Part shown: piece after piece, positions 16,513 through 36,185 of the stretch
Position numbering within the stretch: the stretch's first letter is position 1
Layout of the letters: each line of letters begins with the position of its first letter
NCBI RefSeq assembly: GCF_002939885.1
Contig: NZ_MDED01000001.1
Span: forward strand, 124,001-188,000
Direction: 5' to 3'
Origin: Xanthomonas cucurbitae
Lineage (GTDB): Bacteria; Pseudomonadota; Gammaproteobacteria; Xanthomonadales; Xanthomonadaceae
DNA: 64,000 nt
Position numbers and translations under genes: made by a program
Notes under the pieces: model-generated
What the model was told of the DNA's origin: nothing
Databases searched by the model: none
Seen by the model: only the letters and a program-made list of their open reading frames with translations

Positions 16513-20141
<3,629 letters not shown>

Positions 20142-20168
20142 TCACCGCGCCCTGCTCTGGAGTTCATC

Positions 20169-21293
20169 GTGTCGCTGCCCGTTTCGCGCCGTTCGTTTCT
20201 TGGTCTTGCCAGCTCCGGGCTGGCGGTGTCCGCACTCGGGTTGAGTTCGCCTGCCGAGGCCGCCCGCAAGCGCGCCGCCGCGCCCGCTGCCCCCGGCGTG
20301 GCGCCTGCCGCCGGTACCGTGTACCTCAACTACAACGAACATCCGCTGGGGCCCTCCCCGGCCGCGCTGGACGCGGCCACGCGGTCGCTGGCGCGTGCTG
20401 GCCGCTATCAGTTCGAGATGGAGCAGGATCTGCGCAACCTGATGGCCGGCGAATTGCAGCTGCCGAACGATCACATGGCGTTTTTCCCAGGCTCCAGCGA
20501 CCCGTTGAATCGCACCGGCACCCTGTTCACCTCGCCGCGCGCAGGTCTGGTCATCGCCGACCCGACCTTCGAAGCGCTGGCCGATGTCGCTATCGCACAT
20601 GGCGCACCGGTACGTCGCGTGCCCTTGCGGGCCGATGGCGCGCACGACGTCAAGGCAATGGCCAAGGCCGATCCGACCGCTGGCCTGATTTACGTGTGCA
20701 ACCCCAACAATCCCACCGGTTCGATCACGCCGCGCGCAGACATCGAATGGCTGTTGGCAAACAAACCGGCCAGTGCGGTGCTGGTGGTCGACGAGGCCTA
20801 TATTCAGTACAGCAACGAGACCTCGGTGGTGGACCTGGTGCGCCAACGCCAGGACCTGATCGTGCTGCGCACGTTTTCCAAGTTGTACGGCATGGCCGGG
20901 CTGCGACTGGGCGCGGCCATCGCCCCGCCGGGCCTGTTGACCAAGCTCGCCACGCTGGGCGGTAACCCGCTGCCGGTACCCGCCATGGCGGCCGGCATCG
21001 CCAGCCTGCGCGATCCCTTGCTGGTACCGACACGTCGCGCCGAGAACGCGCGCGTGCGCGAGGACACCATCGCCTGGCTCAAGGGCAAGGGCTACACCTG
21101 CCTGCCATCGCAGGCCAATTGCTTCATGGTGGACATCAAGCGCGATGCCAAGGTGTTTGCCGACTCGATGCAGAAGCAGGGTGTCATGGTTGGCCGCAGC
21201 TGGCCGATCTGACCCAAGCGCGTCCGCGTGACCGTGGGCACCGAGGCGGAAATGCTGCGCTTCCGCGAGGCGTTCACCAAAGCCAAACGCTAA
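20169..21293 (+). pseudogene. Tat-exported HisC-like aminotransferase, interrupted by an in-frame TGA
   Basis: A class I/II PLP-dependent aminotransferase resembling histidinol-phosphate aminotransferases. A twin-arginine signal (SRRSFLGLASSG, residues 6-17) suggests periplasmic export. NPNNPTG (178-184), VVDEAYI and the PLP lysine Lys238 (TFSKLYG) are intact. After GRSWPI a TGA (21210-21212) stops the frame at residue 347. The same frame then continues for 26 codons with family-typical sequence (RVRVTVGTEAEMLRF) to a TAA at 21291. The TGA stands where TGG (Trp) is expected. The lost tail carries the arginine that binds the substrate carboxylate in HisC enzymes. The start is GTG 20169, after TGGAG. 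Confidence 0.8.
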
Positions 21294-21324
21294 CTCGCGA
21301 AGCGTTCGATAAAGCCGACGCGGA

Positions 21325-21368
21325 CCCTTCTCCCATCGGGACATTGTCCCCCTTTATGGGGGAGAAGG
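21325..21368. repeat. Mosaic intergenic repeat, copy A (hairpin part)
   Basis: CCTTCTCCC (21326-21334) pairs with GGGAGAAGG (21360-21368), enclosing a second palindrome GGGACATTGTCCC. It is followed by a GC-rich block ending GGATGAGGG. The same modules, in opposite order and strand, occur at 27961-28086. The site is between convergent genes. Confidence 0.75.
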
Positions 21369-21550: not shown

Positions 21551-21955
21551 CTACGGCACGAGAGCCGTGCCTTCTCGCCCCGCAGGGAGAGGGGCTTTCG
21601 TGCGCAACGTGCGCCGGATCCACAGATAGCTGATGACGAAGGTCAGCACCATCGAGCCGGCATTCCACAGCAGCAGCTCGCGCAGCATCGGCGCGCCCTG
21701 CAAGATGTGGGCGTAATAGCGGGAATCGATCAGCGCGATCGCATGCGGCATGAACACGCTGATGAACGGTGTTGGCACCGGCGCAACCAGCAAGGTGATC
21801 GCGACCGCAAAGCCAGCCACCACCCTGGGTGAGTTGCGCGGGCGTGCGCGCAGACGCGCGGCGACCCGTGTAACGATCCACAACAACGGCATCGCCAGGA
21901 TTGCCCACAGCATCAACAGCAATGCCACCGCCAACATGCCCTGCAGGCTCAGCAT
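21551..21955 (-). CDS. Hypothetical small integral membrane protein
   Basis: A 134-residue protein with three or four predicted membrane helices (about 5-28, 45-65 and 93-113) and a short basic C-terminus. No family is recognised. It starts 9 bp after the zipA stop on the same strand, so it probably shares that transcript. The last dozen or so codons (…PLPAGREG…) read through mosaic-repeat DNA, so the natural C-terminus may have been altered by the repeat. Its membrane nature and position after zipA allow, but do not prove, an envelope role. Confidence 0.6.
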   Translation of the reverse strand: MLSLQGMLAVALLLMLWAILAMPLLWIVTRVAARLRARPRNSPRVVAGFAVAITLLVAPVPTPFISVFMPHAIALIDSRYYAHILQGAPMLRELLLWNAGSMVLTFVISYLWIRRTLRTKAPLPAGREGTALVP

Positions 21956-21964
21956 GGGCTCAAC

Positions 21965-22690
21965 TCACCAGCGCGGCGGTTTGGTCAGTGGCGGGGCCTG
22001 GTGCTGGCGGTCGTAGGCGCGCAGTTCGTCGCGGATATGCGCCACCCGCTGCCGACCCAATGCATTGCGGCTGTCGTCCAGCACCACACCATCCAGCAAC
22101 TCGGCGATGCGCTGCACGGTGGGCAGCATCTTTTCCCAGGCATCGAGCGCGGTCATCGGCGCCGGCAAGGTCAGGAAGAAAGCGATCGCCGGCGTCTGCA
22201 TCTCGCGGATGTTGGCCATGTCGAAGCTGCCCGGCTTGAGGATGCTGGCCATGCTGAAGATCGGCCCGCGCTCGGGGTGGCCCTCGACCAGGCGATGGAA
22301 CACATTCATATGGCCGAATACCAGGCCGGTCTTTTCGGCCGCCACCACCACGTCTTCGCCGCGCAGGATCTGGCCCGCCTTGGCCGCGACGAACAGCGAC
22401 ACGATCTTGTCGAAATCCTGGTTCGGGCGCTTGCCAACATCGCTGCCGCCGGTGCTGTCCTGCGCATCCAGCTCAAGTTCGCTCTGTTCGGCACTGCGCT
22501 CGAACACCTCGCCCTGCACATCGGCATCGCCGGAAATCGACGGCTCGCGGCGCTCGCGCGGTTGCCCCTCGTCCTTGTCCACCCGGCGCCCCTGCGGCGA
22601 CTTTTTCGGGCGGCCGAACAGGAAAATGGCCGCGACCAGCAGCAGCCCGGCGATCAGGATTCCGATCCGGATCATGGCCATGTCGGACAT
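21965..22690 (-). CDS. zipA: Cell division protein ZipA
   Basis: A 241-residue inner-membrane anchor for FtsZ at the division site. One N-terminal membrane helix (about 6-26) is followed by a charged linker (about 28-85) and the C-terminal ZipA globular domain (about 90-225), with FVAAKAGQILRGEDV, the FGHMNVFHR stretch and the SMASILKPGSFDM stretch. It is shorter than E. coli ZipA because the Pro/Gln linker is reduced. GGAGG sits 8 nt before ATG 22690; the second ATG four codons on is an alternative. It lies just downstream of smc, an order known in many gammaproteobacteria. Confidence 0.9.
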   Translation of the reverse strand: MSDMAMIRIGILIAGLLLVAAIFLFGRPKKSPQGRRVDKDEGQPRERREPSISGDADVQGEVFERSAEQSELELDAQDSTGGSDVGKRPNQDFDKIVSLFVAAKAGQILRGEDVVVAAEKTGLVFGHMNVFHRLVEGHPERGPIFSMASILKPGSFDMANIREMQTPAIAFFLTLPAPMTALDAWEKMLPTVQRIAELLDGVVLDDSRNALGRQRVAHIRDELRAYDRQHQAPPLTKPPRW

Positions 22691-32619: not shown

Positions 32620-33282
32620 ATGAACGAACTCAACCATTTGCTGGACAACAACCGCGCCTGGTCCGAGCGCATCCGCCGCGAAGATCCGGAATTCTTCTCC
32701 AAACTATCGACCCAGCAGACGCCCGAATACTTGTGGATCGGCTGCTCGGATTCGCGCGTGCCGGCCAACCAGATCATCGATATGGCGCCGGGCGAGGTGT
32801 TCGTCCACCGCAACATCGCCAACGTGGTGGTGCACACCGATCTGAACTGCCTGTCGGTGATCCAGTTCGCGGTCGACGTGCTCAAGGTCAAGCACGTCCT
32901 GGTGGTGGGCCATTACGGGTGCGGTGGCGTGTTCGCCAGCCTTACCCAGAAGCGCATGGGCCTGGTGGACAACTGGATCCGCCACGTCACCGACGTGGCC
33001 GACAAGCACGAAACCTGCCTGCACGAGGCCGGCGACCTGCCGGTGCAGCACGCGCGCCTGTGCGAGCTCAACGTGCTGGAACAGGTGGTCAACGTCTGCC
33101 GCACCACCATCGTGCGCGATGCCTGGGACCGCGGCCAGCCGCTGTGCGTGCATGGTTGGGTGTACAGCCTGCGCGATGGCCATGCGCACGACCTGGGCAT
33201 GTCGATCGATCGTCCCGAGGTGTTGCAGGAACGCTACGACGCCGCGCTGGCAAAAATCCAGGCCGACCACGCCGAACGCTGA
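32620..33282 (+). CDS. can: Beta-class carbonic anhydrase (Can type)
   Basis: A 220-residue enzyme that interconverts CO2 and bicarbonate in the cytoplasm. Zinc ligands Cys42 and Asp44 (CSDSR) with His98 and Cys101 (GHYGCGG) match E. coli Can in position. Its start, [11 protein letters not shown], also resembles Can; I chose ATG 32620 over in-frame upstream starts for that reason. A second, different beta-carbonic anhydrase is encoded at 56872-57552 with a SulP transporter; this copy stands alone and is the better candidate for the housekeeping enzyme. Confidence 0.95.
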
Positions 33283-33368
33283 GTCGCCGCCGCGCGCGCA
33301 AGCCACGGCGACGCCCACCGGCGCCGCTGGTTGGCTATGCTGGGCGCCTTATCTGCCAAGGAACGTCG

Positions 33369-33899
33369 ATGCTGGTCCCGCCGATCAATCTGCACGCCTG
33401 GATCGCGCAGCACCGCCACCTGCTCAAGCCGCCGGTGGGCAATAAATGCATCCAGCAGGACGGCTTCATCATCATGATCGTCGGCGGCCCGAATGCGCGC
33501 ACCGACTATCACTACGACGAAGGCCCGGAGTGGTTCTTCCAGCTGGAAGGCGAGATGGTACTGAAGGTGCAGGACGACGGCGTGGCACGTGACATCCCGA
33601 TCCGCGCCGGCGAGATCTTCCTGCTGCCGCCGAAAGTGCCGCATTCGCCACAGCGCGCCGCCGGCTCGGTCGGCCTGGTGATCGAGCGCGAGCGCCTGCC
33701 ACACGAACGCGACGGGCTGCAGTGGTATTGCCCGCACTGCAACCACAAGCTGTACGAGGCGCTGTTTCCGCTGCGTAATATCGAAACCGATTTTCCGCCG
33801 GTGTTCGATCACTTCTATCGCTCGCTCGCACTGCGCACCTGCACGCAGTGCGGGCAGGTCCATCCGGCGCCCGAACGCTATGCCGCGGCCGGCGACTGA
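33369..33899 (+). CDS. nbaC: 3-Hydroxyanthranilate 3,4-dioxygenase
   Basis: A 176-residue cupin dioxygenase that opens 3-hydroxyanthranilate to 2-amino-3-carboxymuconate semialdehyde, which cyclises to quinolinate for NAD synthesis. The catalytic iron ligands are in [17 protein letters not shown] and in VPHSPQR. The C-terminal CPHC and CTQC pairs form the rubredoxin-like second iron site of the bacterial enzyme. AAGGAA precedes ATG 33369. It lies upstream of kynU and kmo with an exporter gene between. The gene is also called haaO. Confidence 0.95.
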
Positions 33900-34055
33900 G
33901 TGGACGAGGGCATGCGCCGGCTGCAGGCAGGTCTGGCGCGATGCGGTGGGTCGCCCGTGCGCGAGGGCAAGACGCGCAAACGCCATCCCCATGCCGCACG
34001 CTGATCCCTGCATGAAGCCACCCAAGCCCGCTCGCCCACCGGCATCATCGCCGAC

Positions 34056-36185
34056 ATGCTGCGCACACTGATCGACCTCAAGCCGCGCGACGTGCCGCTG
34101 CGCGTTGCCTTGCGCAACACCGCTGCGGTGGTGCTGCCACTGGCGGTGGGCGTGGCCACCGGGCATGTCGCCGCCGGACTGGCGGTGTGCAGCGGCGCGC
34201 TCAACACCATGTTTACCGACCAGCCCGGCCCGTACCGCGCGCGTCTGCAGCGCATGCTGATGGCCGCACTGACGGCGGGCCTTGCGGCCTTGCTCGGCAT
34301 CTGGGTTGGCCAAGACACCCCGGCGTTGGTAATCGCCGGGCTGCTGCTCGGCCTGGGTGGCGGCCTGTTGGTCGCGCTGGGCCCGGTGGCGGCGCGGGTC
34401 GGTCTGACCAGCATGATCCTGCTGGTGGTCAGCGCCGACATGCGGTTGCCGGTGGAGCAGGCGCCCGGCGTGGCGGCGTTGATCTTTGCCGGCGGCCTGT
34501 TGCAGGTGCTGCTGGCACTGGCGGCGTGGCCGTTGCAACGCTATCGCCCGGAGCGGTTTGCACTGGCCGAGCTGATGCGCCAACTGGCCGGCATCGCCCG
34601 GCAACGTCCGGAAGCCAGCGCCGCACCACCGGCCACCCAGGAAGTGCTGGACGCGATGGTGATGCTGCACGGCGAGCATCGCTCGCGCGCGATCGCGGTG
34701 CAGAGCTTTCGTATCATCGCCGAGCTCTGCGACCGCGTGCGGCTGGAGCTGCTGTCGCTGTCCGACGCCGACACCCGATTGAGCGATTCCCAGGCGCGCC
34801 CGGCGATCGAGCGCGTGCTGGAACGCAGTGCCATCGTGCTGGAACAGCTGGCGCACGCCATGACGGTGGGCGAAGACCCGAACGCAGCCGATGCATCGAT
34901 GACCGGCTTCGACGATCTGATCGCCGCACTGGCGCAGTTTCAGCACGACAACGCCGACACCCGCGAGCGCCGGCTGGTGCGCGTGGCAGTGGCCCGTGCG
35001 CAAGGCCTGGGCGGGCAGTTGCGCGCCCTGGTCCGCAATGCGCACTGGGCCAGCAGCCGCGGCGAGATCCAGGCGCAGCTGGCCGAAGCACGGCTGCCTG
35101 CGGCACTGCGACCGGCCGCGACCTGGGCCACCCTGCGTGCGAATCTGGATCTGTCCTCGGTGGCATTCCGGCATGCGTTGCGCTGCGGGGTGTGCCTGGC
35201 TCTGGCGATCGCCTTCCAACGTTGGCAGCAGATTCCGCACGGTTTCTGGATCCCGATGACCACCGCCATCGTGCTCAAACCGGATTTCGGCGGCACCTTC
35301 AGCTTCGGCGCGCTGCGCGTGGCGGGCACCTTCGTCGGCCTGCTGCTGGCCACCTTGCTGGCGCACCTGGCGATGGATGGCGCCAGCATCCGCCTGGCCC
35401 TGCTGGCCCTGTTTTGCCTGGGCTTCCGCTTGCTGACCCAGGTCAACTACGGCATCGGCGTGGCCTTCCTCACCGGCATGCTGGTGCTGCTGCTGTCCTT
35501 CGAAGGCGTCACGCCCGGCGAAGCGGTCGGTGCGCGCCTGCAGGCCACCGTGGCCGGCAGCGCCTTGGCGTTGATCGCCTATGCGCTGTGGCCCACGCGC
35601 GAACGCCGGCATATCCGCAGCGCGCTGGCGCAATTACTCGGCGCCTACCGCGAGCATCTGCACAACCTGCTGCTTGGGCAGATGGACCGCCTGAGCGACA
35701 GCCGCGCTGCGGCGCGCGTGGCGCGCACCAACACCCAGGCCTCGATCGAGCGCCTGCGTGGCGAGCCGCGCAGCCGGCGCAACCTGCAGGAACTCAAACT
35801 GGCCGAGTCGCTGCTGGCCAACGGCAACCGACTGATCCGCGCGACCTTGCTGCTGGAAGCGGTATTGCGCGATGGTCACCCCTTGCCCACGCTGGACGCG
35901 CTGCCGGCATTTGCCGAACGCGCCGACCAGGCAATGGCCGAGCTCATCACCTGCCTGGCCAACGGCGGCACACCGGCGGCGGCCACCCTGCGCAGTGCCG
36001 AGCGCACGCTCTCCGATGCGCTGGCCGCCTTGTCCGACAGCTCGCCGACCACTGCCGCGCTGGCCGACACCATCGACCGCGTCACCGACAGCATCGACAC
36101 GCTCACCCATCTGCTACGCCCCGCCCGAGCGACCTCGACCGACGCCGCGCTAGCGCATGACGGCGCCCGTGGAGCCGGCGGGTAA
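34056..36185 (+). CDS. YccS/FusC family inner-membrane protein (putative aromatic-acid exporter)
   Basis: A 709-residue membrane protein with two blocks of about five to six helices each (about 20-160 and 370-510), each followed by a cytosolic helical domain. This is the architecture of the FUSC/YccS family, which includes fusaric-acid resistance and p-hydroxybenzoate efflux proteins. The two blocks look like an internal duplication. Its place between nbaC and kynU suggests it may relieve build-up of anthranilate-type acids, but the substrate is not shown by sequence. kynU starts 33 bp after its stop, so co-transcription is likely. Confidence 0.8.
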   Translation: MLRTLIDLKPRDVPLRVALRNTAAVVLPLAVGVATGHVAAGLAVCSGALNTMFTDQPGPYRARLQRMLMAALTAGLAALLGIWVGQDTPALVIAGLLLGLGGGLLVALGPVAARVGLTSMILLVVSADMRLPVEQAPGVAALIFAGGLLQVLLALAAWPLQRYRPERFALAELMRQLAGIARQRPEASAAPPATQEVLDAMVMLHGEHRSRAIAVQSFRIIAELCDRVRLELLSLSDADTRLSDSQARPAIERVLERSAIVLEQLAHAMTVGEDPNAADASMTGFDDLIAALAQFQHDNADTRERRLVRVAVARAQGLGGQLRALVRNAHWASSRGEIQAQLAEARLPAALRPAATWATLRANLDLSSVAFRHALRCGVCLALAIAFQRWQQIPHGFWIPMTTAIVLKPDFGGTFSFGALRVAGTFVGLLLATLLAHLAMDGASIRLALLALFCLGFRLLTQVNYGIGVAFLTGMLVLLLSFEGVTPGEAVGARLQATVAGSALALIAYALWPTRERRHIRSALAQLLGAYREHLHNLLLGQMDRLSDSRAAARVARTNTQASIERLRGEPRSRRNLQELKLAESLLANGNRLIRATLLLEAVLRDGHPLPTLDALPAFAERADQAMAELITCLANGGTPAAATLRSAERTLSDALAALSDSSPTTAALADTIDRVTDSIDTLTHLLRPARATSTDAALAHDGARGAGG

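What the first reader, a model, noticed from the sequence alone, without database searches (positions are those of the whole stretch)
20169..21293. In-frame TGA removes the substrate-binding tail of a Tat-exported aminotransferase
The frame is intact and family-typical up to GRSWPI, then TGA (21210-21212), then 26 more codons of clear family sequence (RVRVTVGTEAEMLRF...) to TAA. TGA differs by one base from TGG, and Trp fits that spot. The lost tail contains the Arg known to bind the substrate carboxylate in HisC-type enzymes, so the product is probably inactive. It may be a strain-specific nonsense mutation, a sequencing error, or read-through. The rest shows no decay, which implies a recent event.
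Basis: partly seen in the sequence, partly recalled or inferred. Interest (0 to 1): 0.7.

Follow-up and report, generated by a model that had tools for sequence, protein, structure and literature searches.

The report
Recently broken periplasmic aminotransferase gene
A Xanthomonas gene for an exported enzyme has been cut short by a stop signal that its relatives lack, so the enzyme is probably dead; it looks like an ordinary recent gene loss, in a gene that other small-genome Xanthomonas have also lost.

Summary
The frame opens with GTG at 20169, meets TGA at 21210-21212, and 26 family-typical codons then lead to TAA at 21291-21293. In 80 of 80 named loci the frame continues past this place and keeps the C-terminal Arg. 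The protein belongs to NCBIfam NF006580 (PRK09105), a HisC-like exported aminotransferase family near PtaA; it is not true HisC. The lost part is the last strand and helix of the fold, with an invariant Arg that matches the carboxylate-anchoring Arg of a solved relative. The window's branch has 17 silent and 2 amino-acid private changes, so the stop is recent. Read-through has no support: no selA, and no UCA-anticodon tRNA among 49 found. Among 34 Xanthomonas genomes at least 90% complete, the five with a broken or missing orthologue are the five smallest, probably in three lineages. Likeliest reading: a recent loss-of-function mutation in a gene shed repeatedly during genome reduction. A base error in this draft cannot be excluded without reads.

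The parts
20169..21209 (+). open part of the aminotransferase gene, 347 codons, GTG start
   Evidence: NF006580 550 bits against a cut-off of 444; Aminotran_1_2
20184..20204 (+). twin-arginine motif SRRSFLG at residues 6-12, start of a probable Tat export signal
   Evidence: sequence; S6, R7, R8, F10, L11 invariant in 16 aligned relatives; the motif rule is recalled, no signal predictor was run
20880..20882 (+). codon of Lys238, the expected PLP lysine
   Evidence: invariant F-S-K-x-Y-G-x-A-G motif, aligned with the lysine of solved chains
21195..21197 (+). codon of Arg343, the first C-terminal arginine, still encoded
   Evidence: Arg in 80 of 80 named loci; aligned with Arg 323 of chain 4r2n
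21210..21212 (+). in-frame TGA stop
21213..21290 (+). 26 codons of family sequence beyond the stop: last strand and last helix; the second, invariant Arg (position 353) lies at 21225-21227
21291..21293 (+). TAA, the family-typical end of the frame
17472..19973 (-). DNA ligase (ligA-like) gene, upstream neighbour on the other strand
   Evidence: frame; conserved beside the gene; the name is recalled, no family search was run on it
21551..21955 (-). small membrane-protein-like frame, downstream neighbour
   Evidence: match in 20 of 80 named loci
21965..22690 (-). zipA-like gene, downstream flank of the conserved slot
   Evidence: the name is recalled, no family search was run on it

Best explanation
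A recent nonsense mutation has inactivated the only PRK09105/PtaA-like Tat-exported aminotransferase gene of this Xanthomonas. Translation ends after residue 347. [quoted passage not shown] Shown: the stop, its absence in the relatives examined, the lost residues, the lack of other decay, and the absence of a second copy over the family cut-off. Inferred: export, loss of activity, and that the loss belongs to the gene shedding seen in small-genome members of the genus.
For: No internal stop, and Arg343 and Arg353 kept, in 80 of 80 named loci. One of 89 family matches has an internal stop. Arg353 is invariant in 16 aligned sequences and aligns with the Arg of chain 4r2n that fits Arg330 of M. 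tuberculosis ArAT, described as anchoring ligand carboxylate (passages of PMC4703992). The lost part is strand 351-355 and helix 359-373 of a model of the intact relative L033, mean pLDDT 84.3. Private changes on the window's branch are 2 amino-acid and 17 silent; a wholly neutral branch would give so few amino-acid changes with probability 2.4e-7 or less. One family member over the cut-off in the genome, this one. The five genus genomes with a broken, remnant or missing gene are the five smallest of 34. One of 81 compared genes has a stop deep inside.
Against: No raw reads and no second strain of this species could be examined. The assembly is a draft in 181 contigs. The lack of other decay is also what a base error would leave. 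The genome-size link counts related species as independent: three of the five form one group in the zipA tree. One intact genome of 4.3 Mb (G028, 81% complete) was left out of that count.
Confidence: 0.8

Rival explanations
1. A base-calling or assembly error in a draft genome; the gene is intact in the living strain.
For: A single stop in an otherwise constrained frame is what an error would look like; the draft has 181 contigs.
Against: No other deep internal stop among 81 compared genes; completeness 100 and contamination 0.39. The same gene is damaged, a remnant or missing in four other small-genome species, which raises the prior for true loss; G008 and G029 among them are drafts too.
Confidence: 0.13
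2. The TGA is read through, at least in part, and a full-length enzyme is still made.
For: The tail has not decayed: against its three close named relatives it shows 1 amino-acid change each time and 1 to 6 silent ones. Natural leakage at UGA is known (recalled).
Against: No named locus has a stop here, so nothing is conserved as a recoding site. No selA match. The one tRNA-Sec model hit over the cut-off is a tRNA-Ser. None of the 49 tRNA genes found has a UCA anticodon, though no tRNA-Ile with anticodon GAT was seen either, so the draft's tRNA set is incomplete. A recent stop explains the undecayed tail equally well.
Confidence: 0.04
3. The 347-residue protein keeps a function, catalytic or not, and the shortening is tolerated or selected.
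For: The body is under strong constraint on the window's branch (1 amino-acid and 16 silent private changes); the PLP lysine and Arg343 remain.
Against: The constraint can predate the stop. The tail holds an invariant Arg and the last strand of the domain. No other matched family member ends at this place; two matches end earlier, G008 at 317 and G310 at 318 of 374, the latter in a genome 57% complete.
Confidence: 0.03

Closest known systems
NCBIfam NF006580 / PRK09105, pyridoxal phosphate-dependent aminotransferase subfamily
   Same: 550 bits against a cut-off of 444 for the open part alone, matched from residue 2 on
   Different: This copy ends 27 residues before the end of its intact relatives
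PtaA, periplasmic transaminase A of Pseudomonas fluorescens
   Same: Next-best model (388 bits). PtaA is Tat-exported with its PLP and also occurs in species without pyoverdine (passages of the review PMC6206403; the original paper was not held)
   Different: Below the PtaA cut-off of 500, for the window protein and also for the intact relative (427 bits). Substrate in Xanthomonas unknown
HisC, histidinol-phosphate aminotransferase (TIGR01141; solved 1fg3 and others)
   Same: Related sequence and active-site pattern
   Different: 201 bits against a cut-off of 276.55. The genome has a separate HisC over the cut-off

Membership tests
NF006580 / PRK09105 exported aminotransferase | model score over the curated cut-off | tested here: met
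   550 bits against 444 for residues 1-347
NF006580 / PRK09105 exported aminotransferase | complete C-terminal strand and helix with the invariant Arg | tested here: not met
   the frame ends before them; it is a broken member
NF006580 / PRK09105 exported aminotransferase | Tat export signal | tested here: inconclusive
   SRRSFLG motif present, its S, RR, F and L invariant in 16 relatives; no predictor or experiment
PtaA (NF051461) | score over the equivalog cut-off of 500 | tested here: not met
   387.9 bits; the intact relative scores 427
HisC (TIGR01141) | score over the cut-off of 276.55 | tested here: not met
   201 bits; the HisC at G000:C26 scores 357.4
UGA recoding (selenoprotein or suppressor) | selA, tRNA-Sec or UCA-anticodon tRNA in the genome | tested here: not met
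   the draft may lack some tRNA genes
recent pseudogene | lesion absent in orthologues, rest of the frame without decay | tested here: met
recent pseudogene | lesion confirmed in reads or other strains | not testable with these tools
   no reads and no second strain held

The most novel reading that the evidence does not exclude
Loss of this periplasmic aminotransferase is repeatedly favoured, not merely tolerated, when xanthomonads narrow their niche. Probably three lineages have lost it by different lesions at different stages, and the five affected genomes are the five smallest of 34 in the genus. An exported product or cell-envelope modification made by the enzyme could then be a liability in those lineages.
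Probability: 0.08. Interest if true: 0.5.

Novelty: new member of a known kind. Interest (0 to 1): 0.25.

Why it matters
It is one more case of gene decay caught early. The added value is comparative: the same gene is freshly broken, frame-broken, partly deleted or missing in five small-genome members of the genus, in a slot that is otherwise conserved. This gives a tractable marker of genome reduction and a hint that the unknown periplasmic reaction is dispensable in some plant-associated lifestyles.

Tried and rejected
Selenocysteine or suppressor read-through: rejected for lack of machinery. A second copy that would cover the loss: none over the family cut-off. Widespread sequencing error: 7 of 81 conserved genes were flagged when frames of G011 were sought in the own contig. 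Five of the 7 have, in their best alignment, a stop only within the first 31 aligned codons, which fits over-long start calls in the relative. One of these five (own contig 156924-160182, window 32924-36182) has a second, 70% alignment with four stops; another frame there matches at 85%, so I read it as a shadow, without further test. One is a split alignment of an overlapping frame without a stop. One is this gene. The reverse comparison, own frames sought in G011, flagged 8 of 81; five of these stops were placed or its input, at residues 9, 22, 185 of 190, 67 of 694 and 6, and the rest were not looked at. The first gene comparison was too crude: it flagged 54 of 115 and 53 of 119 frames, mostly low-identity or shadow frames, and was replaced. 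The antisense frame 20142-21344 was taken as a shadow of GC-rich coding sequence and not tested. Paper searches listed nothing on this gene in Xanthomonas; only the listings were seen.

Full report
What is there. The window lies in a Xanthomonas draft genome of 4.42 Mb in 181 contigs (the genus follows from 91% DNA identity to X. floridensis). A frame opens with GTG at 20169 and runs 347 codons to TGA at 21210-21212. Another 26 sense codons in the same frame lead to TAA at 21291-21293. The open part scores 550 bits with NCBIfam NF006580 (PRK09105; cut-off 444), 388 with PtaA (cut-off 500) and 201 with HisC (cut-off 276.55). It is therefore a PRK09105-type aminotransferase with a twin-arginine start, near PtaA, and not HisC proper. 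A HisC over its cut-off is intact at G000:C26.

Relatives. One search found 507 relatives and kept the best 80, paralogues included. Of these 80 named loci, 80 have no stop in the matched frame, reach at least residue 365 of 374, and keep arginines 343 and 353 (52 of them were also listed). In the genus survey of 35 genomes, 30 have an orthologue that runs to the end. This genome has the TGA. G008 has a frame change near residue 317. G019 has a partly deleted remnant with a stop. G018 has no match, and G029 has only a 52% match with a stop outside the slot, which looks like the paralogue. A survey of 297 genomes of the family, drawn from a larger group, gave 89 matches in 65 genomes at E up to 1e-60; this one alone has an internal stop. 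Two others end early: G008 at 317 and G310 at 318 of 374, the latter in a genome 57% complete. That E limit leaves weak remnants out.

The slot. The gene sits between a ligA-like and a zipA-like gene. Of the 80 named loci, 72 have a ligA match and 68 a zipA match; loci are at most about 7 kb, so some flanks are cut, and the three paralogue loci printed (L109, L111, L112) have neither. In G018 and G029 the two flanking genes lie about 180 and 330 bases apart, with no aminotransferase match between them. G019 has the remnant there.

What is lost. In an alignment of 16 intact relatives P349, R353, V356, G357, E361, M362, F365 and A368 of the tail are invariant. Against solved chains the tail aligns with the C-terminal strand of HisC-like aminotransferases. 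In 4r2n the aligned Arg is number 331 of the chain and the PLP lysine number 218. The paper on M. tuberculosis HspAT and ArAT names Lys217 and Arg330 in ArAT, the latter involved in anchoring the phosphate, sulphate and carboxylate of ligands (passages of PMC4703992). I take the offset of one as numbering; that 4r2n is that enzyme is my inference. Arg322 of that enzyme, the 'arginine switch', then matches Arg343 here, which is still encoded. A model of the intact relative L033 (mean pLDDT 84.3, 16-sequence alignment) has a strand at 351-355 and a helix at 359-373 as its last elements. Loss of activity is inferred; no assay exists.

How recent. With four close relatives as reference, the window branch has 1 amino-acid and 16 silent private codon changes in the body, and 1 and 1 in the tail; the other four branches together have 17 and 58 in the body, and 0 and 5 in the tail. 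With three relatives the window has 2 and 17 in the body, and 1 and 1 in the tail. These counts use only codons at which the other relatives agree. If the whole branch had been neutral, 2 or fewer amino-acid changes of 19 would have probability 2e-8 to 2.4e-7; if a tenth of it had been neutral, 0.02 to 0.03; if a twentieth, 0.07 to 0.08. So the stop is younger than roughly a tenth of the branch, or an error. The gene tree joins the window with X. melonis (support 84/92), the zipA tree with X. floridensis (98/90), so the branch itself is uncertain.

Error or mutation. I compared 248 kb of contig C1 with 288 kb of G011. By a rule of at least 100 residues, 55% identity and mostly silent changes, 81 genes were kept. 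Seven were flagged: this gene, five with a stop within the first 31 aligned codons, and one split alignment without a stop. This is the only deep internal stop in a best alignment. The reverse comparison flagged 8 of 81 frames in G011, so flags of this sort are common and mostly reflect start calls; not all were resolved. The result argues against a poor draft, but not against a single wrong base.

Read-through. The genome has no selA match. Eleven matches to the tRNA-Sec model were found, one over the cut-off; ARAGORN names that one tRNA-Ser. RF00005 found 49 tRNA genes. ARAGORN was run on loci that cover all 49, and no UCA anticodon appeared. No tRNA-Ile with anticodon GAT appeared either, so the draft's set is incomplete.

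Genome size. Among the 34 genus genomes at least 90% complete, the five with a broken, remnant or missing orthologue have 4.1, 4.3, 4.3, 4.42 and 4.5 Mb, and the other 29 have 4.6 Mb or more (sizes of the other genomes are rounded by the tool). G028 (4.3 Mb, 81% complete, intact) was left out of this count. Five smallest of 34 by chance is 1 in 278,256 (1/C(34,5)), and a rank test gives p = 0.0004, but both treat species as independent. In a zipA tree of 33 rows the window, G008 and the group of G018, G019 and G029 fall apart, each nearest to species with an intact gene (support of the last group 86/85), so three losses are likely. The paralogue, about 51% identical, is also missing at E up to 1e-40 from this genome, G013, G025, G018 and G019, and only partial in G009, G011 and G029.

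Verdict. This is most likely a recent loss-of-function lesion in the sole PRK09105-type gene of this genome, in line with gene shedding in small-genome xanthomonads. It is ordinary in kind. The recurrence is mildly interesting.

Noticed in passing
L026 (G008:C253), gene from locus position 1501: The orthologue of another small-genome species has a frame change near residue 317, so its C-terminal end is also lost.
   Followed up: partly
L198 (G029) and L199 (G018): The conserved ligA-zipA slot has no aminotransferase match; the two flanks lie within a few hundred bases of each other.
   Followed up: partly
L197 (G019): A partly deleted aminotransferase remnant; the neighbouring ligA-like gene is only 73% identical to the window's over residues 1-583 (the locus ends there), against 89-92% in the three other genomes compared.
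   Followed up: no
window genome G000: The second PRK09105-type gene (about 51% identical) present in most Xanthomonas genomes surveyed is missing here and in G013 and G025.
   Followed up: partly
G011 zipA (L130-L131): G011 groups with the window's close kin in the aminotransferase tree but with X. pisi in the zipA tree, a hint of recombination near this slot.
   Followed up: no
L079: A contig titled Bacillus subtilis SK7B5 encodes a 58% identical homologue, otherwise seen in Xanthomonas and its kin; possibly a contaminated record.
   Followed up: no
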